A stretch of DNA of 37,851 bases, taken from the NCBI GenBank assembly GCA_026391315.1, contig JAPLDT010000060.1:1-37851 (forward strand), written 5' to 3'. The DNA comes from Bacteroidia bacterium. GTDB lineage: Bacteria; Bacteroidota; Bacteroidia; Bacteroidales; Prolixibacteraceae. Positions 128 through 35,357 of this stretch are shown piece after piece (within the stretch, counting starts at the first letter, position 1; each line of letters starts with the position of its first letter). Under the pieces are notes generated by a model that worked only from the letters and a program-made list of their open reading frames with translations, ran no database searches and was not told where the DNA came from. A program made the translations under genes and the position numbers.

Positions 128-220
128 CTTATTACCTTATTCCCGGATTTCAAAAAGAAATAATCGAAAAAATTTTGGCTTTTGGCCTCATAAATAAGGT
201 AATAAGGTAATAAGGTTGGG
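128..220. repeat. Mirrored tandem array, unit AATAAGGT
   Basis: The left arm at 128-144 contains TTATTACCTTATT. The right arm at 193-220 is its reverse complement, expanded to three copies of AATAAGGT. The spacer is about 49 bp. The layout matches the other mirrored arrays in this window, but the unit is different (period 8). Confidence 0.6.
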
Positions 221-324
221 AGTAGTCTTTTGAAACGGCTTTTCTACTAAGGTTTCCAAACGAAGATAAGGTTTAGAACAACCATAGATAGAACATTTCC
301 CATCAGGACGATTTACCATCGGTT

Positions 325-384
325 GACTCGTCATCCCAACCCTTCGACCCTTCGACAGGGCAGTGCAGCTCAGGGAGCATCCTC
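325..384 (-). repeat. Dispersed repeat (CCCTGAGC..GTCGAAGGG family), reverse copy
   Basis: Read on the minus strand this segment gives GATGCTCCCTGAGCTGCACT followed by CCCTGTCGAAGGGTCGAAGG. The same composite order occurs on the plus strand at about 12826-12870 and in shorter form at 2880-2910. It is a dispersed intergenic repeat with no coding potential. Confidence 0.7.
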
Positions 385-398
385 TGCACCAATCCGGG

Positions 399-426
399 AT
401 TTAGTCCCGCAGGTGCGGGACTAAAT
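399..426. repeat. Perfect 12-bp-stem hairpin
   Basis: ATTTAGTCCCGC (399-410) and GCGGGACTAAAT (415-426) are exact reverse complements around the loop AGGT. There is no U-tract, so a REP-like palindromic repeat fits better than an intrinsic terminator, although an insulating role upstream of the toxin-antitoxin pair is possible. Confidence 0.65.
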
Positions 427-504
427 ATTGGTAGCCAGGATTCGTATGCAGGCTTTGTAATGCTTCTCTTTACATATAAACGAGTTACCAACAATACAAG
501 AAAA

Positions 505-536
505 TTTGCAAGTGGTGTATATTTGGTGTATATTTG
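505..536 (+). promoter_or_regulatory. parDE promoter with tandem 11-bp operator-like repeat
   Basis: A TTTG box (505-508) is followed after 20 bp by TATATTTG (529-536), an exact match to the Bacteroidota primary-sigma pattern TTTG-N17-23-TAnnTTTG. The -7 box lies in the second copy of an exact 11-bp direct repeat, TGGTGTATATT (513-523 and 524-534); the first copy contains another TATATTTG. Predicted transcription starts only about 10 nt before the ATG at 554, which rules out the upstream ATG at 506. The repeat position suggests the antitoxin's autoregulatory operator; that is inference. Confidence 0.7.
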
Positions 537-553
537 CATCAAAACAAAATATT

Positions 554-799
554 ATGGCAAGACAAAGTATATCGTTCACAAAACCAAATGAAGAATGGTT
601 AAAAGTACAAGTGAATAATGAAGAATACACTAGTAAAAGTGAACTAATTAATGATTTGATTAGACAGGCTAGAAAGCAGCAAGTTCAAGTTGATTTTATT
701 AGAGCTAAATTAGATAAATCTGAAAGTAGTGGATTTACTGATGATACTAAAGAACTAATTTTAAAACAATCAAAGTCATTACTTAATGGTCAGATATAG
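554..799 (+). CDS. parD: ParD-family antitoxin
   Basis: This 81-aa protein begins MARQSISFTKPNEEWLKVQV and has the ParD/CC2985-type layout: an N-terminal ribbon-helix-helix DNA-binding segment (about residues 1-45, with TSKSELINDLIRQAR as the dimer-forming helix pair) and a charged C-terminal tail that would wrap the toxin. Such antitoxins bind their own operator and neutralise ParE. The start at 554 is chosen because the promoter -7 box ends at 536; a longer frame from 506 would begin inside the promoter. The stop overlaps the next gene by 14 bp, typical of translationally coupled antitoxin-toxin pairs. Local AT content is high compared with the housekeeping genes, which fits horizontal acquisition. 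Confidence 0.87.
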   Translation: MARQSISFTKPNEEWLKVQVNNEEYTSKSELINDLIRQARKQQVQVDFIRAKLDKSESSGFTDDTKELILKQSKSLLNGQI

Positions 800-1082
800 A
801 ATAAGTAATGAAGCTAAGGAAGACTTGATACGGATTCATCATTACGGCATCGAAAAGTTTGGAGTGACTCAAGCTGATAAATACTTTGATTCATTTTTTG
901 AGTATTTTGACATTATAGCCCAACGACCTTTTTCATTTGAATCAGTCGATTATATAAAAACAGGATATAGACGTTGTGTTTGCGGGTCTGATAGTATATT
1001 TTACAGACTAAACAATGGAGTAGTTGAGATAATGGCAATTGTTGGAAGACAAGATTTGAATAGTATCCTACAATTTTTATGA
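786..1082 (+). CDS. parE: ParE/RelE-family toxin
   Basis: The 98-aa product has the compact RelE/ParE fold signature: an N-terminal strand and helix pair (YRISNEAKEDLIRIHHYGIEKFG), a central GYRRCVCGSDSIFYRL strand block and a C-terminal VVEIMAIVGRQDL strand. The A-x-x-D-L-x-x-I-x-x-Y-x-x-x-x-F-G opening and the final GRQD are characteristic of ParE toxins, which usually poison DNA gyrase, though some family members cleave mRNA; the target cannot be read from sequence. The gene overlaps the antitoxin frame by 14 bp and has no separate promoter signal, so it should be co-transcribed from 505-536. The length is normal for the family and nothing looks broken. Confidence 0.87.
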   Translation: MVRYRISNEAKEDLIRIHHYGIEKFGVTQADKYFDSFFEYFDIIAQRPFSFESVDYIKTGYRRCVCGSDSIFYRLNNGVVEIMAIVGRQDLNSILQFL

Positions 1083-1144
1083 ACAGATTACCCGATTTCA
1101 ACAATATCAAGGGTGAAAAACGACATAGAAACTGACTGAGATTT

Positions 1145-1321
1145 ATGAATGTAAAACATGGCATTGAATCACTGATTGAATGTGATGAATATTTTGGATT
1201 TATTGCAGGATATACTTCAAATGGAGTGCCTTATGGTTTGTCCCACAAAGAAATGGATGAGATAAGGGATGAAATCAAGAACGAAATAATAGAAAAGAAT
1301 AATTTAGATTTGCCATTTTAA
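1145..1321 (+). CDS. Small conserved-looking protein (58 aa), function unknown
   Basis: An uninterrupted 58-codon frame opens with ATG at 1145 and ends with TAA at 1319-1321. It encodes MNVKHGIESLIECDEYFGFI followed by AGYTSNGVPYGLSHKEMDEI and an acidic/basic helix ending NNLDLPF. The F-I-A-G-Y-T-x-x-G-x-P-Y-G-(I/L)-(S/T) core resembles a motif I associate with small uncharacterised bacterial proteins; this is recalled similarity, not a search result. It starts 62 bp after parE in the same orientation, and its stop touches the attC-like element. It may be a third cassette-borne gene or an accessory to the toxin pair. No function is assigned. Confidence 0.6.
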   Translation: MNVKHGIESLIECDEYFGFIAGYTSNGVPYGLSHKEMDEIRDEIKNEIIEKNNLDLPF

Positions 1322-1470
1322 CGATAGAATGAAGTACGGTTGGCAACACATGGTATAGTGCATGCGGGTTTCAGCGGTTTTCGAGGGTTCGTGGCTCGTA
1401 AATAAAGTAGGTGTGAACTGAAGCTATAGCTTCGTAATCCCGCACGCACCTTACCCTCGACCGTTAGACA
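1315..1470. mobile_element. Structured attC-like element ending in GTTAGAC
   Basis: The left boundary TTTAACGATAG (about 1317-1327) is an imperfect inverted match to CGACCGTTAGAC at the right (1458-1469), whose last seven bases GTTAGAC fit the integron R' pattern GTTRRRY. Inside, CGAGGGT (1382-1388) pairs with ACCCTCG (1453-1459), a GCGGG near 1364-1368 can pair with CCCGC near 1439-1443, and GAAGCTATAGCTTC (1420-1433) is a perfect palindrome. At about 155 bp it is at the long end for attC sites, and no integrase is in view. An unrelated dispersed palindromic repeat is the main alternative. Confidence 0.4.
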
Positions 1471-2321
1471 TAGAGCGACCCTATCACAAACACGGCAAAA
1501 ATAACCCCTGCAATCCCGTTCATGGTGCCGAATGCCAGATTGACCCGGCTCAGGTCATCGGCTTTAACAATCAGGTGTTGGTACACCATCAGAGCCCCGA
1601 AAATGCCGGCGCCCAGCCAGTAAATATAATTGGATTCCATAACTAATCCTGCTGCAATTACAAGAATAAAGGTCGCCACATGCAGCAAAACCGAGATTCT
1701 CAGCGCGTTTTTTACACCAGTTAGTACCGGTATGCTTTGTAGGCTGTACTGCCGGTCAAACTCGACATCCTGGCAAGCATAAATAACATCGAACCCGCTT
1801 ACCCAGAAAAAGACCACTCCCGAAAAGAGCAAAGGCGCCACAGCAAACGAACCGGTCACAGCCAGCCAGGCCCCGATGGGTGCAAGCGACAGTCCAAGGC
1901 TAAGCACAAAATGGCAAAGAGGCGTGATCCTTTTGGTAAAACTGTATCCCAAAACGACAAACAGAGCGACGGGAGAGAGGGCAAAACACAAGGGATTGAT
2001 CAGGTAGGTGACAGCCACAAACAGCAAAGTATTGACGATGACAAAGGCAAGGGCTTTGGGCGCTGAAACCAAACCTGCGGGGATCTCCCGCCTGGCCGTG
2101 CGGGGATTGGCTGCATCAAATCTTCGGTCAAGGTAGCGGTTAAAACCCATAGCCGCGTTGCGGGCAAAAACCATCGAAAGAATTACGGTACCCAAAAGCC
2201 GCCAGAAATGAACCTGGTCTGTGACCCGTGTAGCCATAAAAAATCCAATCAGCGCGAAAGGCATCGCGAATATCGTATGTTCGAATTTGACGAGACGGGA
2301 GTAAAGGAGGAGTTTGTTCAT
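1464..2321 (-). CDS. UbiA-family polyprenyltransferase (menaquinone pathway candidate)
   Basis: This 285-aa integral membrane protein has the two aspartate-rich motifs of UbiA prenyltransferases: N61-x3-D65-x3-D69 (NRYLDRRFD) and D178-x6-D185-x3-D189 (DVIYACQDVEFD). These bind Mg2+-prenyl diphosphate and position the aromatic acceptor. About eight or nine hydrophobic segments follow the usual topology, and the N-terminus (SRLVKFEHTIFAMPFALIG) is typical of the 4-hydroxybenzoate polyprenyltransferase-like group. In quinone-using Bacteroidota this subgroup is often assigned to the futalosine menaquinone route (MqnP), but the acceptor cannot be determined here and no other mqn gene is in the window. 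The stop codon lies inside the GTTAGAC end of the preceding structured element. Confidence 0.85.
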   Translation of the reverse strand: MNKLLLYSRLVKFEHTIFAMPFALIGFFMATRVTDQVHFWRLLGTVILSMVFARNAAMGFNRYLDRRFDAANPRTARREIPAGLVSAPKALAFVIVNTLLFVAVTYLINPLCFALSPVALFVVLGYSFTKRITPLCHFVLSLGLSLAPIGAWLAVTGSFAVAPLLFSGVVFFWVSGFDVIYACQDVEFDRQYSLQSIPVLTGVKNALRISVLLHVATFILVIAAGLVMESNYIYWLGAGIFGALMVYQHLIVKADDLSRVNLAFGTMNGIAGVIFAVFVIGSLYV

Positions 2322-2326
2322 AAGGA

Positions 2327-2472
2327 AGTGCCTAGAGTGCCTAAAGTATTTAAAGTGCCTAAAGTTACGACATGTTCGTAAGTTGTGGAAACCCGGGTGC
2401 TAATTTGTCTAAAAATTCAACTAATTTTGGTTATCCTAAGACTTTAGGCACTTTAAATACTTTAGGCACTCT
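2327..2472. repeat. Mirrored 9-bp array, AGTGCCTAA/AGTATTTAA family (copy 1)
   Basis: The left arm (core 2335-2365) reads as 9-mers AGTGCCTAA, AGTATTTAA, AGTGCCTAA; the right arm (2441-2471) is its exact reverse complement over 31 bp. The 75-bp spacer has no array. The element fills the divergent gap between the prenyltransferase and the SRPBCC gene, ending 4 bp before the latter's ATG. A second member of the same family is at 28160-28311. Confidence 0.85.
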
Positions 2473-2475
2473 ACC

Positions 2476-2850
2476 ATGAAAGACTTCAAAAAACGCTACA
2501 CCCTCAATGCGACCCCGCAGGATGTTTACAGTGCGATGACCAATCCGCTGATGATAGAAATCTGGACCGGTGAGCCCGTGGTAATGAGCACCGAACCCGG
2601 CAGTGAATTTGAAATCTGGGATGGCGCCATCACCGGCCAGAATCTCGAATTTATCCAGGATAAGCTGATTGTTCAGAAATGGTTCTTTGGTGAAGAGGAG
2701 GATTCAATCGTGACCATCAAACTCCATCCCGACAGAAAAGGAACCCTTGTGGAGCTGCACCAGACCAATATCCCTGACAACGCCTACGAAAATATGGTAG
2801 AAGGCTGGGATCAGGAATACTTCGGGAATTTGAGGCAGCTATACGAATAG
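2476..2850 (+). CDS. SRPBCC/AHSA1-like domain protein
   Basis: The 124-aa product consists almost wholly of one SRPBCC (START-like, AHSA1) domain. It opens with FKKRYTLNATPQDVYSAMTN, the usual first strand and helix with P-x-x-V-Y-x-A-x-T, then has WTGEPVVMSTEPGSEFEIWD and the later strand TLVELHQTNIPDNAYENMVE before the long C-terminal helix (GWDQEYFGNLRQLYE). The domain forms a hydrophobic cavity; in eukaryotic Aha1 it stimulates Hsp90, while bacterial relatives have diverse or unknown ligands. It is a stand-alone gene facing away from the prenyltransferase. Start codon follows the mirrored repeat by 4 bp, which leaves an unusual 5' untranslated region if transcription starts upstream. Confidence 0.8.
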   Translation: MKDFKKRYTLNATPQDVYSAMTNPLMIEIWTGEPVVMSTEPGSEFEIWDGAITGQNLEFIQDKLIVQKWFFGEEEDSIVTIKLHPDRKGTLVELHQTNIPDNAYENMVEGWDQEYFGNLRQLYE

Positions 2851-2882
2851 GGGGACGGGGATGACTGGGATGACGGAAAGAT

Positions 2883-3143
2883 GCTCCCTGAGCCTGTCGA
2901 AGGGTCGAGTAATCACACACAATTTTCGGTCCCTGAGCTTGTCGAAGGGGAGAAGGGGCGACCGGAACTCCGAACAATAAGAAGATCGAAACGGGGAAAC
3001 GATGAAACAGAGAAATTAAGAAGATGAAACGGAGAACCGGTCCCTGAGCTTGTCGAAGGGGAGAATGGGTGAGGGGGCGATCGGAACTCCGAATGTCTGA
3101 GATCTTGAAAAATGAGACCGGTCCCTGAGCGTAGTCGAAGGGC
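2883..3143 (+). repeat. Four dispersed CCCTGAGC-x-GTCGAAGGG repeats
   Basis: The core CCCTGAGC(C/T)TGTCGAAGGG occurs near 2885, 2931 and 3041, and as CCCTGAGCGTAGTCGAAGGG near 3121. All four are in the same orientation and are separated by unrelated sequence. The core is an imperfect palindrome (CCCT..AGGG), so each copy could form a small hairpin. Further copies are at 325-384 and 12826-12976. Confidence 0.8.
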
Positions 3144-3215
3144 ACAATCCTAAATTTCCTGACCACCATTTGGATCATTCTCAAATCCTACCCAGGAGGG
3201 GTTAAATGTCAATAG

Positions 3216-3250
3216 CCCTGGGTTAAGCGACGAAGGAGCGTTACCCAGGG
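3216..3250. repeat. Palindromic repeat (CCCTGGGT ... ACCCAGGG)
   Basis: CCCTGGGTTAAGCG pairs imperfectly with GCGTTACCCAGGG around ACGAAGGA. It follows GTTAAATGTCAATAG, a context I recall from dispersed repeats of other Bacteroidota. There is no poly-U run, so a terminator is not supported. A second hairpin, CCGTCCG with CGGACGG, follows at about 3272-3318. Confidence 0.5.
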
Positions 3251-3380
3251 TAAAGAGACGAACAAAGACCACCGTCCGCGGTAGCATGCAGAGAAATGAG
3301 ATTGGATCCTTTCGGACGGAAGGTACAAATTAAGAAGAACGTGGAACTAACAGCTAAATGCCAACCGCAACAGCCAATTC

Positions 3381-3887
3381 CTACCTTGGGCTAATCCTCA
3401 GCCTCATCAGATAATCGTCCATCACATAACCTTTCCCGATGTCGGTAACCACTTCGCCGTAGTTTTCGAATCCCAGTTTTTCGTAGGCACAAATTGAGTT
3501 GAAATTCTGTTTGTTAACCGTCAGGGTGATGTATGGGGCTCCAATCTCCCTGCATCTTGCGATCAGAAAGTCGATGGCAGCGTGTCCGATTCCCTTTCCG
3601 CGCTCCGAGCTGAGGATGTATAATTTACTGAGAAATAGTTCGTTGTGCTTTTCGATAATCCCGATATATCCAACAGGTACAAAATCGGAGTAGATCAAGA
3701 AATAGTAATTACCTTCCTGATCCATCTGTGCCAGAATCGACTTTGGGGTCTGGTATTTTCCCAGCATGTAATCAACCTGTTCCTTACCGATGATGGGCGA
3801 ATAATGGTCCGGCCATATGGTTTTGGCCAAACTTGCTACCAGATCAACTTGTGATGCAGTGGTAACCTTAATAATCTGAACTTCCAT
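3381..3887 (-). CDS. GNAT-family N-acetyltransferase
   Basis: This 168-aa protein is a single GNAT domain. The acetyl-CoA pyrophosphate-binding loop is visible as R96-G-K-G-I-G101 (SSERGKGIGHAAIDFL), preceded by the beta-4 strand ELFLSKLYIL and followed by the beta-5/alpha-4 region YITLTVNKQNFNSICAYEKLGFENYG, where N127-x-x-x-C-A-Y-E-K-L-G-F is the classical motif B. It would transfer acetyl from acetyl-CoA to an amine; the substrate is not predictable. The ATG lies one base after the pheT stop, so the two are almost certainly one transcript, although no functional link with aminoacylation is implied. The length is normal. Confidence 0.87.
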   Translation of the reverse strand: MEVQIIKVTTASQVDLVASLAKTIWPDHYSPIIGKEQVDYMLGKYQTPKSILAQMDQEGNYYFLIYSDFVPVGYIGIIEKHNELFLSKLYILSSERGKGIGHAAIDFLIARCREIGAPYITLTVNKQNFNSICAYEKLGFENYGEVVTDIGKGYVMDDYLMRLRISPR

Positions 3888-3888
3888 T

Positions 3889-7191: not shown

Positions 7192-7192
7192 A

Positions 7193-10920: not shown

Positions 10921-11472
10921 TCAAATTAAAGATTAAAGATTAAAAATGAATGTCAGAAAGAGTTGTAAACACTTCTAATCTGTTATTATGCAGTCAATGG
11001 TTTAACCCTATTTTCGTTTCGCAAAATTGGCTATTTTATCTGAATAAATTCAATAGGAATCTTGAAATTGAATAATGAGTCCAACTCCATAAAGAAAAAA
11101 ATTAAGAAGGCCACTAAGTCACAAAATCACTAAGGTATCACAAAGATTTAAATATCAGCACTATGATTCTTTGTGAACCTTTGTGTCATTGGTGTCTTTG
11201 TGGCAAGAAAAGACTTGTCGGAGCTGACTCAATGATGAAAATTGTACAGTTGTCAATTGCCTCGGTTTTTACATTTTGGTATTGCATCATCCTTAATTCA
11301 TTATTACCTTTATACGTTCAAAGTTTAAAAAAATAGACTACCTTGTCATTTATAATTACAGTAAAAATACCTACAAATCCTCCCGCTTTTGCCTTTTTAA
11401 CCGAAAGGCAATCAGACACTAAGTTGTAATCTTTAATCTGTAATTTTTAATTTGTAATCCGTTAGTTCAGTT
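10921..11472. other. Divergent intergenic region with nested inverted arrays
   Basis: No gene is supported in these 552 bp. An outer pair sits at the edges: ATTAAAGATTAAAGATTAAA (about 10925-10944) next to aconitase and its approximate reverse complement, AATCTTTAATCTGTAATTTT (about 11428-11447), next to the permease. An inner mirrored array lies at 11106-11207. Promoters for both flanking genes should be here, but none stands out. Confidence 0.65.
11106..11207. repeat. Mirrored array, CACAAAG/CTTTGTG family
   Basis: The left arm (11106-11145) contains spaced CACTAAG, CACAAAA, CACTAAG and CACAAAG. The right arm (11169-11207) has 9-bp units CTTTGTGAA, CCTTTGTGT, CATTGGTGT and CTTTGTGGC, the degenerate reverse complement. 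The spacer is about 23 bp. It is more diverged than the other arrays and so may be older. Confidence 0.65.
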
Positions 11473-12720: not shown

Positions 12721-12823
12721 CGGAGAGGACTGGGATGACTAGGATGACGGAGATGACTAGGATGACTAGGACGACTGGGATGACGAAGACGACTAGGATG
12801 ACTAGGACGACTGGGATGACGGA
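12716..12823 (+). repeat. Twelve-unit 9-bp tandem array (GATGACTAG-like)
   Basis: Twelve consecutive 9-mers with no gaps begin AATGACGGA, GAGGACTGG, GATGACTAG, GATGACGGA and end GACGACTGG, GATGACGGA. Every unit fits GA-N-GAC-N-N-N or a one-base variant. The first unit overlaps the permease stop. Units alternate among at least five variants, suggesting higher-order duplication. No mirrored arm is found nearby. The following AAGATGCTCCCTGAG junction is shared with position 2875. Confidence 0.92.
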
Positions 12824-13073
12824 AAGATGCTCCCTGAGCTGCACTGCCCTGAGCCTGTCGAAGGGTCGAAGGGGAGATGGGGGCGAGTGGGAGAAGGTGC
12901 GAATGCGACTCCCTACTAGTCAAGCCAAATTTGAAAAGGTGAAACAGTGAACCGATCCCTGAGCTTGTCGAAGGGCGGATGGTCTATTATTATCAGTTTG
13001 CAGGTAGCTTCCTGCTACTTTAGCTAACCGTTAGGCAAAATCACAGAAAAATCAATAATTATCAACTTAGAAT
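12824..13073. other. Repeat-rich gap before the transglutaminase gene
   Basis: It holds CCCTGAGC-type repeats near 12833, 12850 and 12956, then a small hairpin GTAGC/GCTAC (13004-13018) and CTAACCGTTAGGC (13024-13036). The last 37 bp are AT-rich and presumably form the leader of the next gene. A reverse-strand frame that looks like short R/H-P-S repeats is a translation of the arrays, not a gene. Confidence 0.65.
13002..13036. mobile_element. Small GTTAGGC-ended site (attC-like half)
   Basis: GTAGC-TTCCT-GCTAC forms a hairpin at 13004-13018, and GCTAACCGTTAGGC follows at 13023-13036. GTTAGGC fits the integron R' pattern GTTRRRY, and CTAAC/GTTAG are inverted around one base. It sits 37 bp before an AT-rich gene. 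No matching site is found after that gene and no integrase is present, so the evidence is weak. Confidence 0.3.
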
Positions 13074-23533: not shown

Positions 23534-23953
23534 ATGGGAAAAGTGCAGAAGATTCCGATGGAAATTGTCTTTTTGGAGGAGGGGACCATTCATTTGCTGG
23601 TTCAATTCATCCATCACGGAATTGAAAACTATTGGTGGGTTGTAGATACCGGAGCTTCAAAAAGTGTGGTAGAAAGGGCCTTGGCAGACCAGGTTGTTCA
23701 TCACGAATCGGAAGGGGCGATGGCCACGGGGCTGGGGCAGGAGATGGTCGAAACTTCAACTGGGACCATTACCGATTTTCGGTTGGGAGAAAGCGGCTTC
23801 GGTGATCTGCTGGTAGCCATTGTTGATCTTCACCACATCACAGAGGAGTATTCAAAATATTCGGACAAAAGGATCGCCGGACTCCTTGGCAGTGATTTCT
23901 TTTACCGCGAAAAGGCAGTGATTGATTATGAGAACTTAGTCATCCTGATTTAG
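23534..23953 (+). CDS. Retropepsin-like aspartic protease domain protein
   Basis: The 139-aa product has a single clan AA (retropepsin-like) domain. The catalytic triplet is D38-T-G-A-S42 (WWVVDTGASKSVVE), and the matching hydrophobic-hydrophobic-G signature is IAGLLGSDFF near residue 118, where the fold closes with YENLVILI. As a one-lobe enzyme it would act as a homodimer. There is no signal peptide or membrane segment, so a cytoplasmic location is expected. Bacterial relatives are often annotated as aspartyl protease or retropepsin-like but have few known substrates. It precedes secDF by 134 bp, which contains secDF's own -7 box, so an operon is unlikely. Confidence 0.82.
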   Translation: MGKVQKIPMEIVFLEEGTIHLLVQFIHHGIENYWWVVDTGASKSVVERALADQVVHHESEGAMATGLGQEMVETSTGTITDFRLGESGFGDLLVAIVDLHHITEEYSKYSDKRIAGLLGSDFFYREKAVIDYENLVILI

Positions 23954-24015
23954 TTCCTTAGCGGCAGAAGATGAGTTTTCGGGTAAACTCAACTATTTAA
24001 TATCAAAAAAATAAA

Positions 24016-24023
24016 TATCTTTG
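24016..24023 (+). promoter_or_regulatory. -7 box for secDF
   Basis: TATCTTTG fits TAnnTTTG exactly and lies 64 bp before the secDF ATG. The region upstream is AT-rich, but a -33 TTTG is not obvious. Confidence 0.5.
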
Positions 24024-24087
24024 CGCACTACAAATTTTTAGGATTAGGAAGTTAACAAAGATTAAAAAATAAATAACCGAATTTCCA

Positions 24088-27000
24088 ATGCAGAATAAAG
24101 GATTGATCAGGCTCATAGCCATTTTGATAGGATTGGTGTGTTTTTACCAGCTCTACTTTACCTACAAGGCAATTTCTGTCGAAAACGATGCAACCGCTTA
24201 TGGTATTAAGAAGGCAAAAACAGAGAAACCTGGCGCTACACAAGTTGAAGCAGAGCACATTGCAAAGACGTTTGAAACGCGCTATTTGGATTCTATCGCC
24301 AACCAGCCGGTTTACAACTTCGCTGGTTTGAGGAAGTATACCTTCAAAGAGGTAAAAGAGTTTCAATTGCCACTGGGTCTTGACCTGAAAGGTGGTATGA
24401 ACGTGACCCTCGAGGTATCTGTGGTAGACCTGATTCATGCCCTTTCGGGATACAGCACTGATCCCACTTTCACCAAAGCCATCGAACTGGCACTGCAGAA
24501 GCAGAAGAGCAGTCAGGATGATTTCGTGACCCTCTTTGGAAAAGCTTTTGAACAAATAGACCCCAATGCAAAATTGGCCTCCATCTTCAATACACTTGAA
24601 CTGAGAGACAAGGTAAGCTATAACTCGACCAATTCGCAAGTTCTTTCTGTGATTCGCAAAGAGACAGATGCAGCTATCGATAACTCATTCCAAATTCTTC
24701 GGACACGTATCGACCGTTTTGGGGTGACACAACCCAATATTCAGCAGCTTCAGACCAAAGGCCGGATACTAGTTGAGCTTCCTGGTATTCAGGATGCCAA
24801 CCGCGTTCGCAAACTGCTTCAGGGTACTGCTAACCTGGAATTCTGGGAGACCTACGAAAACAATGAAGTGTATTCCTACCTGCTCGAAGCCAACAAAAGA
24901 TTGCGTGAAGTAAAAGCCGTTCAGGCTGCAGCAACTCCTGCCATTACTTCAACTCCTCTTACTGCCACTGCTGCAAAAGATACAACAAAATCAGCCAGCA
25001 GCCTGGTTAGTGAGATCAAGAAACAGGAGAAAGATTCACTTGCTGCAGGTACGACAGAAGACATTGCCAAGAATTACCCGCTTTTCTCTGTTTTGACACC
25101 CAACACCTCCCGTGAAGGTCAGATCGCACGTGGTCCGATCGTTGGTTATGCACATATTAAAGATACAGCCCAGGTGAACACCTACCTCAAAATGCCGCAG
25201 GTGAAATCGGTTTTCCCGCGCACGATGATCTTCAGGTGGACGGCAAAGCCAATGCCGGGTAATGAAAATTTTTACTCCTTACTTGCCATCAAGGTTTCCA
25301 GTCGTGATGGCCGCGCTCCGCTCGATGGTGGATCTGTGACTGAAGCACGACAGGATTTCGGTCAAAACAAGGCTTCCAGCGTGGTCGATATGACCATGAA
25401 TGCTGAAGGAGCCAAGATTTGGCAACGAATCACCCGCGAAAATGTGGGCAAAAGTGTTGCTGTCATCTTGGATGATTACGTTCAATCCTATCCAACCGTA
25501 CAAGGCGAAATTCCTAACGGTCGTACAGAAATTTCCGGACAGTTCACCGTGGATGAGGCGAAAGACTTGGCAAACATGTTGAAATCAGGTAAGATGCCGG
25601 CACCTGCCCGTATCGTTCAGGAAGAGATAGTAGGTCCGACATTGGGTAAGGAGTCGATTACAAGTGGTATGTGGTCATTCTTTATTGCCTTCATATTGGT
25701 ATTGACATACATGTTGTTCTTTTACAGCACAAAAGGTGGATGGTCGGCCAACGTGGCGCTGCTTGTCAACCTCTTCTTCCAGATAGGTATTCTGGCCTCA
25801 CTCGGCGCCGTGCTTACCCTTCCGGGCATCGCGGGTATCGTGTTAACCATGGGTATGGCAGTCGACGCTAATGTTTTGATCAATGAGCGTATTGAAGAGG
25901 AGGTTCGAGCTGGTAAAGGGATGCGATTAGCCATTAAGGACGGATACCGCCACGCCTTATCAGCGATCATCGACGGTCACGTCACTTCTTTCCTGACTGG
26001 GGTCGTATTGTATATATTCGGTACAGGTCCGATCAAGGGATTTGCTTCCACATTGTTGGTAGGTATAGCGATGTCGCTTGGTACCGCTGTCTTCATCTCC
26101 CGTTTTATGTTCGAGAGATGGTTGGATACCAACAAAAAGATCACCTACGTAACTAAATTTTCAGCTGAATGGTTACGTAATGTTCACTTACCGTTCATTC
26201 AGAAAAGAAAGTTTTTCTACATATTTTCAAGTGTTCTTGTAGGTATCTGTATCCTATCGGTTATTTTTAAAGGGATGAACTACTCCATCGACTTCAAAGG
26301 AGGCCGTACCTATGTGGTTCGTTTGAACAAAGATGTGATGGTGGAAGATGTAGCCAAATCACTGGCGCCAGAATTTGGGAATGCCCCTGAAGTGAAAACG
26401 TATGGTTCCAACAACCAGGTTCGTATAACCACCGATTACAGGATTGATGAGACCACTGATGCAGTTGATGCAGAAGTTGAGGCCAAACTTTACAAAGGGA
26501 TGAAACCATACCTTGGATCTGATGTTACTCTAGAGAAGTTCCTTACCGACTACAGGATGAGTTCTCAGAAAGTTGGACCAACTATTTCGTATGATATCAA
26601 GAAGCATGCGGTTTTAGCGGTAGTATTTTCATTGCTCATCATCTTCCTCTACATTGCCGTCCGTTTCAGAAACTGGCATTTTGGCTTGGGAGGTCTGGTA
26701 TCACTGGCACACGACACCATTATTGTCATTGGGATGTATTCCATACTGGATGGCTTTCTTCCTTTCTCACTTGCCGTCGATATGTCCTTTATTGCAGCGG
26801 TACTGACCATCATTGGATACTCGATCAACGATACAGTTATTGTCTTTGACCGTATCCGTGAATACGTAGGACTGCATCCAAAGCAGGATCCGGAAAAAAC
26901 ATACAACGATGCCATGAACAGCACTTTAAGAAGAACCTTCAGTACTTCACTGACAGTTTTGGTGGTATTGTTGGCCATCTTCCTCTTCGGCGGAACTTCG

Positions 27001-27510: not shown

Positions 27511-27512
27511 CC

Positions 27513-28169
27513 ATGCTTGAAGCCAGCCTGATTACCAAATCGTATGGAAATCTTCAGGTACTGAAAAGTGTCTCGCTGAAGGTCGAAGAACACGAGATTG
27601 TCTCAGTTGTTGGCGCCAGCGGAGCAGGAAAAACTACGCTTTTACAGATATTGGGATCTTTGATCCAACCCGATTCCGGAAAGGTTTTGATACATGGGAA
27701 CGACCTGTTCTCATTGGGGGAAAGGGATTTATCGCGGTTCAGGAACAAAGAGATAGGCTTCGTCTTCCAGTTTCACCACCTGCTTCCCGAATTTACAGCA
27801 TTTGAAAATGTTTGCATACCGGGCTTTATTGCAGGAACAAAGAAGAGTTCAGTTGAAAAGAGGGCTGAAGAGCTATTGCAGATTCTGGATTTGTTACCAC
27901 GAAAGCAACATAAGCCATCTCAATTGTCTGGTGGAGAGAAGCAGCGGGTAGCCATTGCCCGGGCATTGATCAACAACCCCTCTGTTATTCTGGCCGATGA
28001 ACCATCCGGTAACCTGGATTCTCAAAATCAGGAGGAGCTCTATCGGCTTTTCTTCTCAATCCGCGAGAAATTTGGCCATACCTTTGTCATTGTCACCCAT
28101 GACGATCATTTTGCCGGAATGACGGATCGGATGATCAGGCTGCAAGATGGCTGCATAAGAAGTGCCTAA
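27513..28169 (+). CDS. LolD-type ABC transporter ATP-binding protein
   Basis: The 218-aa ATPase has Walker A G34-A-S-G-A-G-K-T41, Q-loop [14 protein letters not shown] (about 83-96), signature LSGGEKQR (138-145), Walker [13 protein letters not shown] (158-169) and H-loop VIVTHDD (about 192-198). The [16 protein letters not shown]-like stretch and DEPSGNLDS are typical of the LolD/MacB/FtsE group that energises lipoprotein release or mechanotransmission. Its permease is not adjacent; the MacB-like permease at 11473 is one candidate. It is co-transcribed with tatA. The last two codons and the TAA stop (AGT GCC TAA) are the first 9-mer of a mirrored repeat, so the natural C-terminus may have been altered by repeat insertion. 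Confidence 0.92.
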
Positions 28170-28311
28170 AGTATTTAAAGTGACTAAAGTGCCTAAAATA
28201 CTTTCGCCACAATCACATTTTGTTCGGAGTCCAAACTTTAGGCATACTTTTAGCAAATCTTCGGAGTTCCCAACTTTAGGCACTTTAAATACTTTAGGCA
28301 TTTTAGGCACT
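28160..28311. repeat. Mirrored 9-bp array, AGTGCCTAA/AGTATTTAA family (copy 2)
   Basis: The left arm runs AGTGCCTAA, AGTATTTAA, AGTGACTAA, AGTGCCTAA (28161-28196). The right arm (28273-28311) reads ACTTTAGGC, ACTTTAAAT, ACTTTAGGC and ATTTTAGGC, its reverse complement. The 5' edge is the lolD stop codon, and the right edge is 5 bp before the next ATG. The spacer contains a further partial unit near 28235. It belongs with the element at 2327-2472. Confidence 0.88.
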
Positions 28312-28316
28312 CTATT

Positions 28317-29027: not shown

Positions 29028-29030
29028 TTT

Positions 29031-29154
29031 GTTTGAAATGTTTGAAATGTTTGAAATGTTTGAAATGTTTGAAATGTTAAACCTCACAAACAATTTTTAA
29101 ACCCTTTAAACCCTTTAAACCCTTTAAACCCTATAAACATTTCAAACTCTTCAA
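29031..29154. repeat. 9-bp array, GTTTGAAAT then ACCCTTTAA units
   Basis: Five perfect copies of GTTTGAAAT (29031-29075) start 3 bp after the trmN6 stop. After about 25 bp a second run keeps the 9-bp period: ACCCTTTAA three times (29101-29127), ACCCTATAA, ACATTTCAA and ACTCTTCAA (to 29154). The last units restore the reverse complement ATTTCAAAC of the first run, so the layout is mirrored but with a substituted unit in the middle. Confidence 0.9.
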
Positions 29155-29217
29155 AACAATATCTGATTTTTTTTGTAGTTTAGTCCACTATCAAATCAAC
29201 CATTTAAATTTCAAGAT

Positions 29218-29637
29218 ATGGAAATGTTAGCGTCTTTTGCCAAGGTAAATATATGGTCGGTTATTTTGGCCGGCTTTGCATACCTGATTCTCGGGGCCCT
29301 TTGGTATTCACCTCTGTTGTTTGGCAAGCGATGGATGGAACTGAACGGATTTACAGATAAAGATTTAAAATCGAACAAACCGCTGTGGATGATTACCTTG
29401 CTCACCTTCCTGTCGGCCTTTGTCGCATCTTTTGTGATCTCTATGGTACTCGGTCCCCGTTCCAGTGCTGTGTTTGGAGCCATCATCGGAGCCTGCATCG
29501 CTTTTTTCTGGATTGCCATGTCCAAGTTGACCAGTGTTTTATTTGAGAATCAGCCCGTTAAGCTTTATCTTCTGCATGCCGGTTTTGATCTGGTGGCCTT
29601 CATGATCATGGGAGCCATTGTGGGATTCTGGCGCTAG
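29218..29637 (+). CDS. DUF1761 small membrane protein
   Basis: The 139-aa protein has about four membrane helices (near 8-30, 58-80, 83-105 and 115-138). The motifs ILGALWYSPLLFGKRWMELNGF after helix 1, SFVISMVLG in helix 2 and the ending GFDLVAFMIMGAIVGFW match the DUF1761 family of uncharacterised integral membrane proteins. Function is unknown. It lies between a 9-bp repeat array and the DUF4105 gene with 77 bp to the latter, so co-transcription is possible but not required. Length and topology are normal for the family. Confidence 0.85.
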   Translation: MEMLASFAKVNIWSVILAGFAYLILGALWYSPLLFGKRWMELNGFTDKDLKSNKPLWMITLLTFLSAFVASFVISMVLGPRSSAVFGAIIGACIAFFWIAMSKLTSVLFENQPVKLYLLHAGFDLVAFMIMGAIVGFWR

Positions 29638-29714
29638 TTTTAGCGCATTTTTTATTGGGCAACGAATTGATATTTAATGACTTAATCTCCTGTTTTCATA
29701 ACATAAACTGACAG

Positions 29715-30884: not shown

Positions 30885-31122
30885 TCTACAAAACTGTAAC
30901 CGCTACGCGGTATGGATTTTCGATTTACGTGGATATTCTACAAAACTGTAACCGCTACGCGGTATGGCATGATTTGGATTGTATTTGCAGGCCATTTTAC
31001 TACCATGAAGCGGTTGTGGTAATGTGGCGATATAATGTGCAAATGCTGGCCTACCGCGTAGCGGTTACAGTTTTGTAGAAATATTTTATAACGAATGAAA
31101 ATTTACCGCGTAGCGGTTACAG
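30885..31122. repeat. REP palindromes upstream of the transposase
   Basis: Four copies share the stem ACCGC-TAC-GCGGT. Two exact 31-bp direct copies, starting TCTACAAAACTGTAACCGCT, lie at 30885-30915 and 30937-30967. Two inverted copies, TACCGCGTAGCGGTTACAG, begin at 31052 and 31104, the former continuing into TTTTGTAGA. Paired opposite orientations resemble BIME units. A degenerate AAGCGGTTGTGGTA sits between at about 31008. Confidence 0.9.
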
Positions 31123-31165
31123 AAATGATAAAAATCGATTTCAAATAATCCAAAAACCACTAATC

Positions 31166-31630
31166 ATGAAACCTGGATCTTTCACCCAAATCTACATTCA
31201 TCTGGTTTTTAGTCCCAAGCATCGGGAATACTTACTGACGGAAAAAATCAGACCACGAATTCTTGAATATATGAATGGTATTGCATCAAATCTCGGTCAT
31301 AAGCCGATCATCATTAACGGGGTTGATGATCATGTGCACATCTTTCTGGGTCATAATCCTAAAATATCTGTTTCCGATACGGTCAAAGAGTTGAAAAGAA
31401 GTTCATCCATTCTTATCAATGAAAAGAGGCTCGTTGTTGGGAAATTTGAATGGCAGGAGGGTTATGGGGGATTTTCTTATGGGCATTCTCAAATAGAAAA
31501 TGTTTACAATTACATCAAAGATCAAGAAATTCATCATCAAAAACGAACCTTCAAAGAGGAGTATTTGGAGTTTCTGAGCCGGTACGAAATAAAATTTGAA
31601 GATCCATATTTGTTTGAATTCTTTGATTGA
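31166..31630 (+). CDS. REP-associated tyrosine transposase (IS200/IS605 Y1 family)
   Basis: This 154-aa protein is a Y1 HUH transposase. The HUH motif is H56-V-H58 (NGVDDHVHIF), the catalytic tyrosine is most likely Y116 (NVYNYIKDQEIHHQ, with Q120 as the metal-site glutamine) and the opening SFTQIYIHLVFSPKHRE is standard. Such enzymes cut single-stranded DNA beside small hairpins. It is enclosed by eight ACCGC-type palindromes but no target-site or left/right IS ends typical of IS200, which fits the domesticated RAYT subgroup that spreads REP sequences. The length is normal and the active site is intact, so it may be active. Inserted between the DUF4105 gene and mutS. Confidence 0.9.
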   Translation: MKPGSFTQIYIHLVFSPKHREYLLTEKIRPRILEYMNGIASNLGHKPIIINGVDDHVHIFLGHNPKISVSDTVKELKRSSSILINEKRLVVGKFEWQEGYGGFSYGHSQIENVYNYIKDQEIHHQKRTFKEEYLEFLSRYEIKFEDPYLFEFFD

Positions 31631-31636
31631 GATTTC

Positions 31637-31821
31637 TTTAACCGCTACGCGGTAAGGGAATTGTGTATGGCATGATTGTTCTACAATACTTTAAGCCCTA
31701 CGGGCTAAGGATTGATTGTATGCTATTTGACAGGATATTTTGCTTACCGCCTAGCGGTTAAAGTATTGTAGAAAAAAATTGATCGGATTTTGCGTTACCG
31801 CGTAGCGGTTAAAGAATTGTA
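31637..31821. repeat. REP palindromes downstream of the transposase
   Basis: Four copies: TTTAACCGCTACGCGGTAAG (31637-31656); a variant with stem AGCCC-TAC-GGGCT (31692-31708); TTACCGCCTAGCGGTTAAAG (31744-31763); and TTACCGCGTAGCGGTTAAAG (31795-31814). The second copy changes two stem bases on both sides so that pairing is kept. Flanking TACAATACTTTA and AAGTATTGTAG words extend the inverted layout. Confidence 0.9.
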
Positions 31822-31917
31822 TGGGGATCTTAAATTTACTGCATTGTGGCTAAAGTCTTGTAGACCTTTTTAGCGGATTTCCGTATATTTACCTGATCAA
31901 TCATAATAAACCAACAA

Positions 31918-34536
31918 TTGACTACTACCCCCAATAAATACGTTGAGACCCCGTTGATGAAGCAATATTATGCAGTCAAGAACAAATATCCTGACGCGGT
32001 GCTGCTCTTCAGGGTAGGCGATTTCTATGAGACTTTCGGGGAGGATGCCATCAAAGCTGCAGAGATTTGCGGAATAACGCTGACCCGCAGGGCAAACGGC
32101 TCGGCCAGCTTTGTCGAACTGGCCGGATTCCCTTACCATGCATTGGATACTTACCTGCCCAAACTGGTCAGAGCCGGTCAGCGGGTGGCGATCTGCGAGC
32201 AGCTCGAAGATCCCAAACTCACCAAAACAATCGTCAAGAGGGGAATCACCGAACTGATCACCCCCGGAGTTTCGATCAATGACAATGTTCTTGAACACAG
32301 GGAGAACAATTTTCTGGCATCGGTTCACATCGAAAAAAATATAGCAGGTGTAGCCTTCCTCGATATCTCTGCCGGTGAGTTTATTACTGCAGAAGGGAGC
32401 TTCGAACACGTAGACAAGTTGCTCAGCAGCTTTCAGCCCAAAGAGGTGCTTTTTCAAAAAGGAAAGGAGAAACTCTTTACCGAACTATTCGGACCCAAAT
32501 TCTACACTTACAAACTCGACGACTGGGTCTATACCTTCGATGCAGCCAACGACCGGTTGCTTCGCCATTTCGAGACTGTCAACCTCAAGGGTTTCGGCGT
32601 TCAGAATCTTGAGATGGGCATCATCGCATCCGGTGCCATTCTCTATTACCTCGATATCACCCAACACAAGCAGGTAAGCCATATTACGGCACTCTCACGA
32701 ATAGAGGAGGATCAGTATGTCTGGCTCGACCGCTTCACGATCCGCAATCTCGAACTTTTTCATACCATCAACGAAGGGGCGAAAACACTGATCCAGGTGA
32801 TCGACCGCTCCATCACCCCCATGGGTGCAAGGTTGCTGAAACGCTGGATGGCCTTGCCATTGAAAGATACGGGCAAAATCCGTGAACGGCAAGAGGTGGT
32901 GGAACGTTTCGTCACCCATCCTGAATTAAAGGAAGAGATCGAAACACAGCTCCACCTGGTGGGTGATCTCGAGCGAATCATCTCAAAGGCTTCGGTTGGG
33001 CGTATCAATCCCCGCGAAATGGTGCAGCTGAAAAACTCCCTGCTGGCCATTGCCAAAATCAGAAGCTATTGCGAATCTTCAGAGAACAACGTCCTGGTAA
33101 GGGTTGCCGAACAACTGAACCCTTGTCATACCATTTGCGAAAGAATTGCGAACGAATTGGTTGCGGAGCCTCCGGTGATGCTGGTTAAGGGAAACGCTAT
33201 AGCACCAGGTGTCTCGGCAGAGCTGGATGAACTGCGCTCGCTGGCTTTTTCGGGCAAAGACTACCTGCAAAAGCTGCAGGAACGAGAGAGCATACGCACA
33301 GGCATCTCGTCGCTGAAGGTCTCCTACAACAATGTTTTCGGCTATTTCATCGAAGTGCGCAACATGCACAAGGACAAAGTCCCGAATGAATGGATCCGCA
33401 AACAGACCCTTGTTAACGCGGAACGTTATATTACGGAGGAACTGAAAGCGTATGAGACCAAAATTTTGGGGGCGGAAGAGCGTATTTTGGCGCTGGAAAC
33501 CACCCTTTTCAATGATCTGATCAATTCGCTGACAGAATATTACCAGGCCATTCAGCTCAATGCCAGCCTGACGGCTCAGATCGACTGTCTTCGGTCGTTC
33601 GCCACAGTGGCAGTTCAGTACAAATACACCCGCCCGGATGTGAACGACAGCGATATGCTTGAGATCAAAGGAGGGCGTCATCCGGTGATCGAACAGCAAC
33701 TCCCGGTCGGCGAAAAGTATATTGCCAATGACCTGACGCTCGACAACACCGAACAGCAGATCATCATGATTACTGGTCCCAACATGGCGGGTAAATCGGC
33801 CTTGCTCAGACAGACGGCGCTGATTGTGCTGCTGGCGCAGATGGGATCGTACGTGCCGGCCGAAGCGGCAAGTATTGGATACATCGATAAGATATTTACC
33901 AGGGTAGGTGCATCCGATAATATTTCGTCGGGCGAATCCACCTTTATGGTAGAGATGACAGAAGCGGCCAGCATCCTTAACAATATCTCGGACCGGAGCC
34001 TGATCCTCTTCGACGAGTTGGGCCGCGGTACCAGCACCTACGATGGCATCTCCATTGCCTGGTCGATCGTCGAATACATCCACGAACACCCACGGGTAAG
34101 GGCCAAAACCCTGTTTGCCACCCATTACCATGAGTTGAACGAGATGGAAAAATCGTTTGGCCGTATCCGGAATTTCAACGTTTCGATCAAGGAGATGGGG
34201 AAAAACATCATCTTTTTGCGCAAGCTGGTACCGGGAGGCAGTAACCACAGCTTTGGTATCCACGTGGCCCAGATGGCCGGGATGCCAAGGAGTGTGGTGG
34301 CCCGCGCCGAAGATATCCTTTCACAGATGGAGAAGAGCAACCGGAAGGAGTATCCGGCGAAACCGGTTGGAGACCTGGCCCAGAACAGGGAAGGATACCA
34401 ACTCAGTTTCTTCCAACTCGACGACCCGGTTCTCAAACAGATCCGCGATGAGATCAAAAATCTGGATATCAACCGGATGTCGCCATTGGAAGCACTGAAT
34501 AAATTGAATGAGATCAAAAAGATTATAGGTGTATAA
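31918..34536 (+). CDS. mutS: DNA mismatch repair protein MutS
   Basis: The 872-aa protein recognises mispaired bases and small loops. The mismatch-reading F-x-E motif lies in [13 protein letters not shown] (about 32-44). The connector, core and clamp domains follow, then the C-terminal ATPase with Walker A G620-P-N-M-A-G-K-S627, the [12 protein letters not shown] Walker B/signature (about 700-711), and THYHEL. A C-terminal helix-turn-helix dimerisation segment closes the chain. The start is the TTG at 31918: an in-frame stop occurs 10 bp upstream, and the conserved [13 protein letters not shown] would be truncated if ATG at residue 14 were used. No mutL is nearby. The transposase and REP cluster lies directly upstream. 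Confidence 0.96.
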
Positions 34537-34540
34537 AAGG

Positions 34541-34705
34541 GTTACACAGAGATGCACAGAGTTACACAGAGAAAAAATAGTTTGAAAAGTTTTTATTGTT
34601 TAAGAAGTTTAAAATGTTGTGATTGGTAAACGCTTCAAACCCTATAAATTTTAATTTTCTCTCTGTGTAACTCTGTGCGACCTCTTGGTGTTCCTCTGTG
34701 TAACT
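34541..34705. repeat. Mirrored 10-bp CACAGAG array after mutS
   Basis: The left arm has TTACACAGAG, ATGCACAGAG and TTACACAGAG (34542-34571), period 10. The right arm (34657-34705) carries CTCTGTGTAA, CTCTGTGCGA and, after an interruption, CTCTGTGTAA. The spacer contains degenerate TTTGAAAAG and CTTCAAACCC words like those at 29031-29154. The 5' edge is 5 bp after the mutS stop. Confidence 0.85.
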
Positions 34706-34739
34706 GGAATTTAATAACCACTAATTAAAAATTAAGGAA

Positions 34740-35162
34740 ATGAGTATCGGAAAAGAGTTCAAAGAGTTTGCCATGCGCGGCAATGTCGTGGATATGGCAG
34801 TAGGTATCATTATTGGGGCCGCTTTCGGCAAGATTATCACCTCTTTTGTGACGGACGTACTAATGCCGCCACTGGGTATGATTGTTGGTGGGACTGACTT
34901 TCGAGCATTAAAAATACAGTTGAGCGAGCCGGTTATCTCTGGTGGGAAGGCGGTTTTGCCCGGGGCAAGTCTTAATTATGGCAACTTCATTCAGGTGACG
35001 GTCGATTTTTTGATTATCGCTTTTGCCATCTTCATGATGATCAAAATGATGAACCGCTTCATGAAGAAAAATGAAGTGCCTGCGGCCCCTCCTGCTCCGC
35101 CAGAGCCATCCAGGGAAGAGTTGCTGCTTACAGAGATCAGGGATTTGCTGAAGAATAGGTAA
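34740..35162 (+). CDS. mscL: Large-conductance mechanosensitive channel
   Basis: The 140-aa protein is MscL, a homopentameric inner-membrane channel that opens under membrane tension to release solutes during osmotic downshock. The N-terminal amphipathic helix ([18 protein letters not shown]), the pore-lining TM1 with [34 protein letters not shown], the periplasmic loop and TM2 ([20 protein letters not shown]) match the family closely, and the C-terminal coil ends [15 protein letters not shown]. The length is typical. The gene sits between two related CACAGAG arrays, suggesting the repeats have spread between neighbouring gaps. Confidence 0.96.
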
Positions 35163-35167
35163 AATAG

Positions 35168-35357
35168 CTACACAGAGTTTCACAGAGAAGCACAGAGTTA
35201 CACAGAGGGAGAATTATAAAGCTCTAAGGGTCTGAAATGGTTATAATGTTTGAAGGGTTTACCCGCACAACATTATAACCATAATAAACAATAAAAACAT
35301 TTCTAACTATTTTTGTCTCTGTGTAACTCTGTGCTTCTCTGTGAAACTCTGTGTAAC
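35168..35357. repeat. Mirrored 10-bp CACAGAG array after mscL, with nested inner arms
   Basis: The left arm has CTACACAGAG, TTTCACAGAG, AAGCACAGAG and TTACACAGAG (35168-35207), period 10. The right arm (35316-35357) is its nearly exact reverse complement over about 40 bp. Inside the spacer ATGGTTATAATGTT (35237-35250) and AACATTATAACCAT (35269-35282) form a second, unrelated perfect inverted pair, so the whole is a hairpin within a hairpin. Confidence 0.92.

What the first reader, a model, noticed from the sequence alone, without database searches (positions are those of the whole stretch)
128..35357. Mirrored short-tandem arrays in many gaps, same architecture but different units
At least six gaps (128-220, 2327-2472, 11106-11207, 28160-28311, 34541-34705, 35168-35357), plus the hybrid at 29031-29154, hold a run of 8-10 bp units, a spacer of roughly 25-110 bp, then the reverse-complement run. 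Unit sequences differ between most gaps (AATAAGGT; AGTGCCTAA; CACAAAG-like; GTTTGAAAT; NNNCACAGAG), but period and layout are shared. This suggests a common generating process, for example replication slippage coupled to hairpin-templated copying, rather than spread of one sequence. Each transcript end would carry a long hairpin.
Basis: partly seen in the sequence, partly recalled or inferred. Interest (0 to 1): 0.72.

Follow-up and report, generated by a model that had tools for sequence, protein, structure and literature searches.

The report
Mirrored repeat hairpins whose middles flip
Many gaps between genes in this bacterium carry two mirror-image runs of short repeats around a short middle piece, and related species show that the repeat words often change on both sides together and that the middle piece can turn round, which points to a DNA-level copying or recombination process acting on small dispersed hairpin elements.

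Summary
All seven named gaps score above every one of 500 shuffles. Of 171 gaps in 423 kb of this genome, 29 hold an inverted repeat, 19 with periodic arms; 60 shuffles gave none.

The units form families shared by many gaps: AGTGCCTAA doublets (up to 2 mismatches) occur 61 times, and many copies share a core, so dispersal is part of the story.

Six same-genus relatives show two further things. First, a gap can stay mirrored while its units differ: the MutS-MscL gap carries at least four unit families in five species. Second, spacer orientation is mixed (13 inverted, 12 same, 30 unresolved pairs) against 127 same and 3 inverted in control pairs. Two gaps look like in-place inversions.

Terminator function is not favoured: divergent gaps carry them, and arm mismatches show no G·U excess (46 against 51).

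Best reading: foldback-like miniature elements with tandem-repeat arms, kept mirrored by arm-to-arm exchange that also flips the spacer. Against it, most array pieces show no clear partner (92 of 139) and 4 of 20 G004 elements have mixed arms.

The parts
128..150 (.). left arm, AATAAGGT unit (about 1.6 units)
192..216 (.). right arm, AATAAGGT x3
2326..2365 (.). left arm, AGTGCCTAA-type units; 4 bp lie between it and the UbiA start codon
2366..2440 (.). spacer with a promoter-like TAATTTTG box (consensus recalled); inverted in G002, G006 and G013 relative to G000, G003 and G004
2441..2473 (.). right arm, 33/33 mirror of 2333-2365; 2 bp lie between it and the AHSA1 start codon
10921..10955 (.). 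outer left arm, ATTAAAG units, directly beside the 5' end of the aconitase ORF
11110..11146 (.). inner left arm, CACAAAG-like
   Evidence: coordinates read
11168..11204 (.). inner right arm, CTTTGTG-like
   Evidence: coordinates read
11425..11460 (.). outer right arm, TGTAATC/TTTAATC units, close to the next ORF
28160..28197 (.). left arm, AGTGCCTAA type; its TAA at 28167-28169 is the stop codon of the upstream ABC-transporter ORF
28198..28272 (.). spacer holding the family core (..CGCCACA..TTTGTTCGGAGTCC..); core inverted in G003
28273..28311 (.). right arm
29030..29078 (.). left arm, TGTTTGAAA x5
29096..29155 (.). right hybrid arm, TTTAAACCC then AAACATTTC
34541..34572 (.). left arm, TACACAGAG units, about 5 bp after the MutS stop
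34661..34705 (.). right arm
35169..35207 (.). left arm, TACACAGAG units, starting within 7 bp of the MscL stop
35317..35357 (.). right arm, 39/39 mirror of 35169-35207 over 35317-35355; RNA fold of 35160-35365 is -98.6 kcal/mol, z -17.6

Best explanation
The gaps hold small foldback-like elements of several families. Each is arm - spacer - reverse-complement arm, and each arm is a tandem array of 7-11 bp units. Steps shown: the arms mirror each other far beyond chance; families with a common core occur at many places; at one and the same gap different species carry different units, in most cases matched on both arms; and at two gaps the spacer lies the other way round between species, best read as inversion in place. 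Inferred: slippage changes unit number and spreads unit variants inside an arm; exchange between the two arms (recombination through the inverted arms, or template switching on the folded strand) copies the change to the other arm and, when it resolves that way, flips the spacer; elements or single arms also move between gaps by ectopic exchange or by an unidentified mobilising enzyme. No function for the cell is needed.
For: Frequency: 29 of 171 gaps with an inverted repeat, 19 with periodic arms, against 0 in 60 shuffles of all gaps; 48 against 0 in one shuffle of the whole 423 kb sample. Dispersal: AGTGCCTAA x2 (up to 2 mismatches, overlapping hits counted) 61 hits in G000, reversed control 0; core shared between loci; one 118-bp element (L169:11823-11940) matches many places in G002, G003 and G004, mostly at 74-87%; the 29031 array matches many places in relatives at 95-100% over about 49 bp. 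Units that differ on both arms at orthologous gaps: UbiA-AHSA1 mainly GTGCC in G000, G002, G003, G013, GTACTT in G001 and G004, GTGAC/GTGAAC in G006, none in L035. MutS-MscL: CACAGAGTTA (G000), ATCAACACATTA-like (G001, weak), ATGTGCTA (G006), AATGTGGAA (G013) and TTTGAAAAT (G004, wording close to G013); G002 is cut by the contig start and shows only TAGCACAT on the right. L158:3154-3331: mirrored in 6 of the 6 species in which the gap was recovered (G013 not), with two unrelated unit groups. Genome-wide unit dominance differs: AGTACTTAG doublets G000 0, G001 52, G002 5, G003 0, G004 177, G005 0, G006 21; AGTGCCTAA doublets 61, 9, 132, 136, 68, 0, 20; reversed controls 0-2 in these genomes. G001 and G004 are not sisters. 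Arms of one locus resemble each other more than arms of other loci in G000: 22 loci, 0.782 against 0.719, 0 of 200 permutations. Arm type agrees in 16 of 20 G004 loci (Fisher p 0.022). Inversion: 13 INV, 12 SAME, 30 unresolved of 55 pairs, against 127 SAME, 21 unresolved, 3 INV of 151 control pairs; the 13 fall at five of 43 gaps, six of them at the UbiA gap. UbiA spacer: 8 INV, 5 SAME, 8 unresolved of 21 pairs, all resolved ones consistent with two groups. L158:18431-18588 matches G003 at 89% over 109 bp on the opposite strand while its flanking genes keep their direction. Among held loci that spacer and the UbiA spacer hit only their own gaps.
Against: Most array pieces (92 of 139) show no clear partner, though the test misses degenerate mirrors. 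Arms differ in type in 4 of 20 G004 and 2 of 8 G001 loci. The same-locus arm similarity is not significant in G001 (54 of 200 permutations reach it), G002 (78 of 200) or G004 (14 of 200), and G003, G006 and G013 had too few loci. At the UbiA gap a cruder comparison of gap halves put same-side similarity between species level with partner similarity (35.9 and 28.4 against 35.6). For three of the five gaps with inverted spacers the core is dispersed, so independent insertion in the other orientation is not excluded. Target-site duplication, transposase and excision were not tested. Species are only 75-78% identical, so single events cannot be followed.
Confidence: 0.5

Rival explanations
1. Local slippage plus hairpin-templated copying alone, with no dispersal: each gap invents its own unit and copies it to the other side.
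For: Exact mirroring including variant units (33/33, 39/39); different units at the same gap; long pure arrays such as CATTAGCA repeats in G002.
Against: The same unit families with shared cores recur at many places, and AGTGCCTAR doublets occur in 15 of 198 genomes of the order, this one included.
Confidence: 0.17
2. RNA hairpins (terminators or mRNA stabilisers) kept by selection; units are free to change as long as both arms pair.
For: Very stable predicted fold (35160-35365, -98.6 kcal/mol, z -17.6); in G004 a U-rich intrinsic terminator stands where several other species have arrays (MscL downstream); arms begin at stop codons in several gaps.
Against: Orientation follows gap abundance: 7 ++, 7 --, 3 -+, 2 +- of 19 elements (the UbiA gap is miscounted as -- because of a spurious ORF) against 75, 75, 33, 28 of 211 gaps; 14 ++, 16 --, 5 -+, 6 +- in a wider G000 set. 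Divergent gaps carry them. Some lie beyond an intrinsic terminator (L158:9630-10117; window 36116-36244 in G002 and G013; by reading). Transition mismatches on the transcribed strand: 46 G-U against 51 A-C (p 0.68).
Confidence: 0.12
3. REPINs moved by a RAYT transposase (REP doublets forming hairpins).
For: Dispersed extragenic inverted doublets with a spacer; singlets also occur, as for REPs.
Against: Arms are tandem arrays with different unit sequence per family, not one conserved 16-mer; unit and length vary within a family.
Confidence: 0.1
4. Site-specific invertible promoters (invertons) of the Bacteroidota kind.
For: Spacer inversions between species; promoter-like box in the UbiA spacer.
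Against: Arm sequences differ totally between loci that invert, so one recombinase site is unlikely; a convergent gap with a terminator-like hairpin in its spacer also shows opposite orientations (L158:3154-3331).
Confidence: 0.04

Closest known systems
Foldback-type transposons with internally repetitive terminal inverted repeats (Drosophila FB recalled; Galileo PMC3573991, passages)
   Same: Arm - middle - inverted arm; tandem repeats inside the arms; arm length varies; sequence exchange among copies proposed there
   Different: Bacterial, roughly 100-200 bp, units of 7-11 bp, no transposase identified, many unit families in one genome
REPINs (PMC3116915, passages)
   Same: Dispersed extragenic inverted doublets forming hairpins; singlets present
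   Different: REPIN arms are conserved short palindromic REP sequences tied to a RAYT; here arms are tandem arrays of changing units
Nostoc tRNA-Leu(UAA) intron P6b stem made of heptanucleotide repeats (PMC4476775, passages)
   Same: A stem built of tandem 7-mers; one repeat class repeatedly replaced by another, origin of the classes unknown
   Different: One structural RNA locus in cyanobacteria; here many intergenic loci, many unit families, spacer inversion
Small flip-flop inversions at plastid hairpins (PMC6824564, passages; Kelchner and Wendel 1996 seen only in its reference list)
   Same: The loop between inverted arms turns round repeatedly between species in non-coding DNA
   Different: There the hairpins are not described as tandem arrays or dispersed families in the passages seen
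TAACTGA heptamer direct repeats in Beggiatoaceae, Cyanobacteria and some Bacteroidetes (PMC4679880, passages)
   Same: Intergenic 7-bp arrays close to start codons, patchy distribution
   Different: Direct repeats; one inverted case reported in the main genome studied
Quasipalindrome correction by template switching (PMC7202029, listing and start of abstract only)
   Same: A DNA-level process that acts on imperfect inverted repeats through a template switch
   Different: Studied as mutation hot spots; link to tandem-array arms not seen

Membership tests
Foldback element | Long inverted arms made of short tandem repeats around a middle segment | tested here: met
Foldback element | Dispersed copies of one family in the genome | tested here: met
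   61 doublet hits, shared core
Foldback element | Target-site duplication and movement shown by empty sites | tested here: inconclusive
   Orthologous gaps without the element exist (36116-36244, 23953-24088) but flanks are too diverged to read junctions; no systematic duplication test was made
REPIN | Inverted doublet with spacer, extragenic, dispersed | tested here: met
REPIN | Conserved REP 16-mer arm | tested here: not met
   Arms are tandem arrays with several unit variants and family-specific units
REPIN | Associated RAYT transposase | not tested
   no genome search left
Intrinsic terminator | Placed at 3' ends of genes, absent from divergent gaps | tested here: not met
Intrinsic terminator | Short-loop stem followed at once by a T run | tested here: not met
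   Periodic-arm spacers run from about 30 to 120 nt (shorter for a few 7-bp arrays). By reading, no T run follows the right arms at 2473, 28311, 34705 and 35357; a T run lies about 10 bp after 29155, but it is kept in species without an array there
Inverton | Spacer inverts between inverted repeats | tested here: met
   between species only
Inverton | Recombinase-dependent, reversible within a population | not testable with these tools
   no reads or strains available
Known Rfam RNA | Match to a family model at gathering score | tested here: not met
   0 matches in the window

The most novel reading that the evidence does not exclude
A sequence-independent DNA process in these bacteria writes and rewrites mirrored arms at gene borders: whatever unit is amplified on one side of a gap is copied in reverse complement to the other side, the spacer flips as a by-product, and the favoured unit drifts genome-wide from species to species. 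Intergenic DNA would then be under concerted evolution by arm-to-arm copying rather than ordinary point mutation.
Probability: 0.3. Interest if true: 0.82.

Novelty: new variant of a known kind. Interest (0 to 1): 0.62.

Why it matters
Hairpins in bacterial gaps are usually read as terminators or as REP-like elements. Here the same gap keeps a mirrored hairpin while its repeat units differ between species, and the middle turns round. That makes a DNA-level homogenising process directly testable with strain-level genomes, could bear on the unexplained class switches in the Nostoc intron stem, and warns against calling conserved hairpins RNA structures from covariation alone, since DNA copying also keeps arms complementary.

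Tried and rejected
Rejected: chance; a known Rfam RNA; a single spreading sequence (several unit families); different units in every gap.

A first half-gap comparison was set aside because the halves included homologous spacer, which favours same-side similarity. Its result is told here: at the UbiA gap, mean partner score 35.6 against same-side 35.9 and 28.4; at the three other gaps partners won on the mean (27.0 against 21.0 and 18.3; 25.8 against 12.3 and 14.4; 25.4 against 9.1 and 12.7).

A strict period-first detector missed the degenerate AGT arrays and was replaced by inverted-repeat-first detection. The 3 INV calls in the control set come from two gaps that are themselves mirrored (L158:3154 and L158:18431) but missed the cut-offs; they were not removed from the count. 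In the orientation census, 19 of 48 inverted repeats were counted: 26 were left out as short-looped or aperiodic, one had an ORF inside, and the rest lacked a flanking ORF. One search used 70 elements, some of them aperiodic inverted repeats.

Literature: one search found 0 papers for six unit arrays; one search returned 338 papers, and the 20 listed were not about bacterial intergenic repeats by title. Searches listed no paper that I recognised as describing this pattern; listings and abstract starts only, except passages of the papers named in Closest known systems and of PMC4060949 and PMC11892184. PMC13155455, a survey of hairpins in many genomes, was seen only as a listing.
Full report
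What the window is. It is contig 40 of a 4.69-Mb, 111-contig genome. Its UbiA protein is 80-84% identical to those of six MAGs titled Bacteroidia, Marinilabiliales or Tangfeifania, and 65% to Prolixibacter denitrificans, so it is probably a Bacteroidota bacterium near Prolixibacteraceae (inference). Eight genomes of its genus are held. I worked with G000 (own) and G001, G002, G003, G004, G006, G013, and only on parts of each. G005 (locus L035) gave no hit for either unit type. The seven species are 75-78% identical in nucleotides over the genes compared, and the tree is ((G000,G004),(G013,(G001,G002)),G003,G006). A tree from UbiA and AHSA1 alone differs, so recombination between lineages is possible.

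Observation. All seven named gaps are confirmed against 500 shuffles each. Within 423,018 bases of the genome (window plus 20 stretches, about 9%), 48 inverted repeats passed the cut-off and one dinucleotide shuffle gave none. Of 171 gaps of at least 80 bp, 29 held an inverted repeat with a 20-250 bp spacer, 19 of them with periodic arms; 60 shuffles of all gaps gave none. Unit families seen include AAGTGCCTA-type, TACACAGAG, CACAAAG, TGTTTGAAA, AAAGGAT/AAAGTAA, AATGTGAA, GAAATAGGTT, ATTAAAG/ATTACAA and TTATGAG. At least a third of intergenic array pieces have a mirrored partner (47 of 139 against 3.4% expected); the rest are single, weakly mirrored or too degenerate for that test.

Dispersed families. 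AGTGCCTAA doublets (up to 2 mismatches) occur 61 times in G000 with none for the reversed control. Their spacers often share a core of about 35 bp (ACTTCGCCACAA..ATTTGTTCGGAGTCC), including copies in G001 and G004 with GTACTT units in an arm. A 118-bp element of this kind (L169:11823-11940) matches many places in G002, G003 and G004, mostly at 74-87%. The longer pattern AGTGCCTAR x2 plus AGT (1 mismatch) occurs in 15 of 198 genomes of the order, this one included, in 14 of 151 genera, and on both strands in 9 of the 15. One of these (L275) is mirrored and holds an odd TTTG unit in both arms, though in a different order; another (L273) is single-armed. CACAGAG triplets occur in 5 of 296 genomes of the phylum, with 56 hits in G000 and 1 to 3 in each of the others.

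Same gap, other units. At UbiA-AHSA1 all seven species keep a mirrored array, with mainly GTGCC units in four, GTACTT in G001 and G004, and GTGAC/GTGAAC in G006, on both arms; the innermost unit beside the spacer is still GTGCC-type on one side in G001 and G004. L035 and more distant relatives such as L037 have none. At MutS-MscL the five species with the whole gap carry CACAGAG, TTTGAAAAT, ATCAACACATTA-like, ATGTGCTA and AATGTGGAA units; G004 and G013 are close in wording, and the G001 mirror is weak by the ungapped score (12). G002 shows a right-hand array only because the contig begins there. At MscL-L21 (L21 assigned by reading, not by a family search) the arrays are CACAGAG, AATGTGG-like (G001, G013) or CACAAAG, with a simple U-rich terminator in G004 and a REP-like stretch in G006. 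At the convergent gap L158:3154-3331, 6 of the 6 recovered species are mirrored, with AAAGGAT-type or AGATATAA-type units. Genome-wide the dominant unit differs between species.

Spacer inversion. Over 43 gaps of three G000 regions, spacer comparison gave 13 inverted, 12 same and 30 unresolved of 55 pairs in mirrored gaps, and 127 same, 21 unresolved and 3 inverted of 151 pairs in control gaps. Pairs are not independent: the 13 fall at five gaps. For L158:18431-18588 the G000 element matches G003 at 89% over 109 bp on the opposite strand, while the genes on both sides keep their direction; among held loci its spacer hits only these two places. The listing is capped, so weaker copies are not excluded, and G000 itself was not searched with it. 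For UbiA-AHSA1 the groups {G000,G003,G004} and {G002,G006,G013} are consistent in all 13 resolved pairs of 21, and among held loci the spacer hits only orthologues; the capped whole-genome listing also shows one other G004 place matching arms and spacer at 75%. By hand on the concatenated tree this needs at least two changes. At the other three gaps the core is dispersed, so opposite insertion is possible.

Arm agreement. In G000, arms of one locus are more alike than arms of different loci (22 loci, 0 of 200 permutations); in G001 (8 loci), G002 (4) and G004 (20) this is not significant, and the other species had 1-2 loci. In G004, where two unit types coexist, both arms are of one type in 16 of 20 loci (p 0.022); in G001 in 6 of 8 (p 0.375).

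Function. The arrays occur in all gap orientations about as often as gaps do. In co-directional gaps, arm mismatches of the transition kind are 46 G-U and 51 A-C on the transcribed strand, so there is no sign that RNA pairing is what is kept; flanking-gene strand is a proxy for the transcribed strand. The one RNA fold made is very stable all the same, and effects on transcripts may be by-products. Several arms lie between a promoter-like box and a start codon (my reading; the Bacteroidota promoter consensus is recalled).

Mechanism. Slippage in tandem arrays, exchange between inverted arms and occasional movement between gaps explain the facts together. Which enzyme moves them, and whether exchange is by recombination or by template switching, is not shown. 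Foldback elements are the closest in architecture, REPINs the closest bacterial element, plastid flip-flop hairpins the closest for inversion, and the Nostoc intron stem the closest for wholesale unit switching.

Noticed in passing
window 30885-31122 and 31634-31816: REP-like palindromes (ACCGCTACGCGGTA and relatives) in two gaps, several copies in both orientations; also in G004 at the same gaps.
   Followed up: partly
window 338-360, 2883-2960, 12826-12873: TCCCTGAGC..TGTCGAAGGG-type repeats; the last two stretches match many places in the relatives' genomes.
   Followed up: no
window 3142-3340: Another stretch of gap sequence that matches dozens of places in the relatives' genomes at 71-91%; a separate dispersed repeat.
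   Followed up: no
window 12728-12820: GATGACTAG x10 array, 9-bp period, with no mirrored partner found; an example of the unmirrored class.
   Followed up: no
window 503-1082: Two small overlapping ORFs that look like a toxin-antitoxin pair (by reading, no family search); a 91% match of 550-895 in G003 stands out against the 73-82% of most neighbouring long matches, suggesting recent movement.
   Followed up: no
L160:155-262 (G000:C99): Pure GAAATAGTTT array of more than 10 units near a contig end; several relatives' contigs also begin within or close to arrays, so short-read assembly may break at them.
   Followed up: no
L158:3174-3332: The spacer of this mirrored element contains a terminator-like hairpin (GACGC..GCGTC TTTTTT), and the element matches other places in the relatives.
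   Followed up: partly
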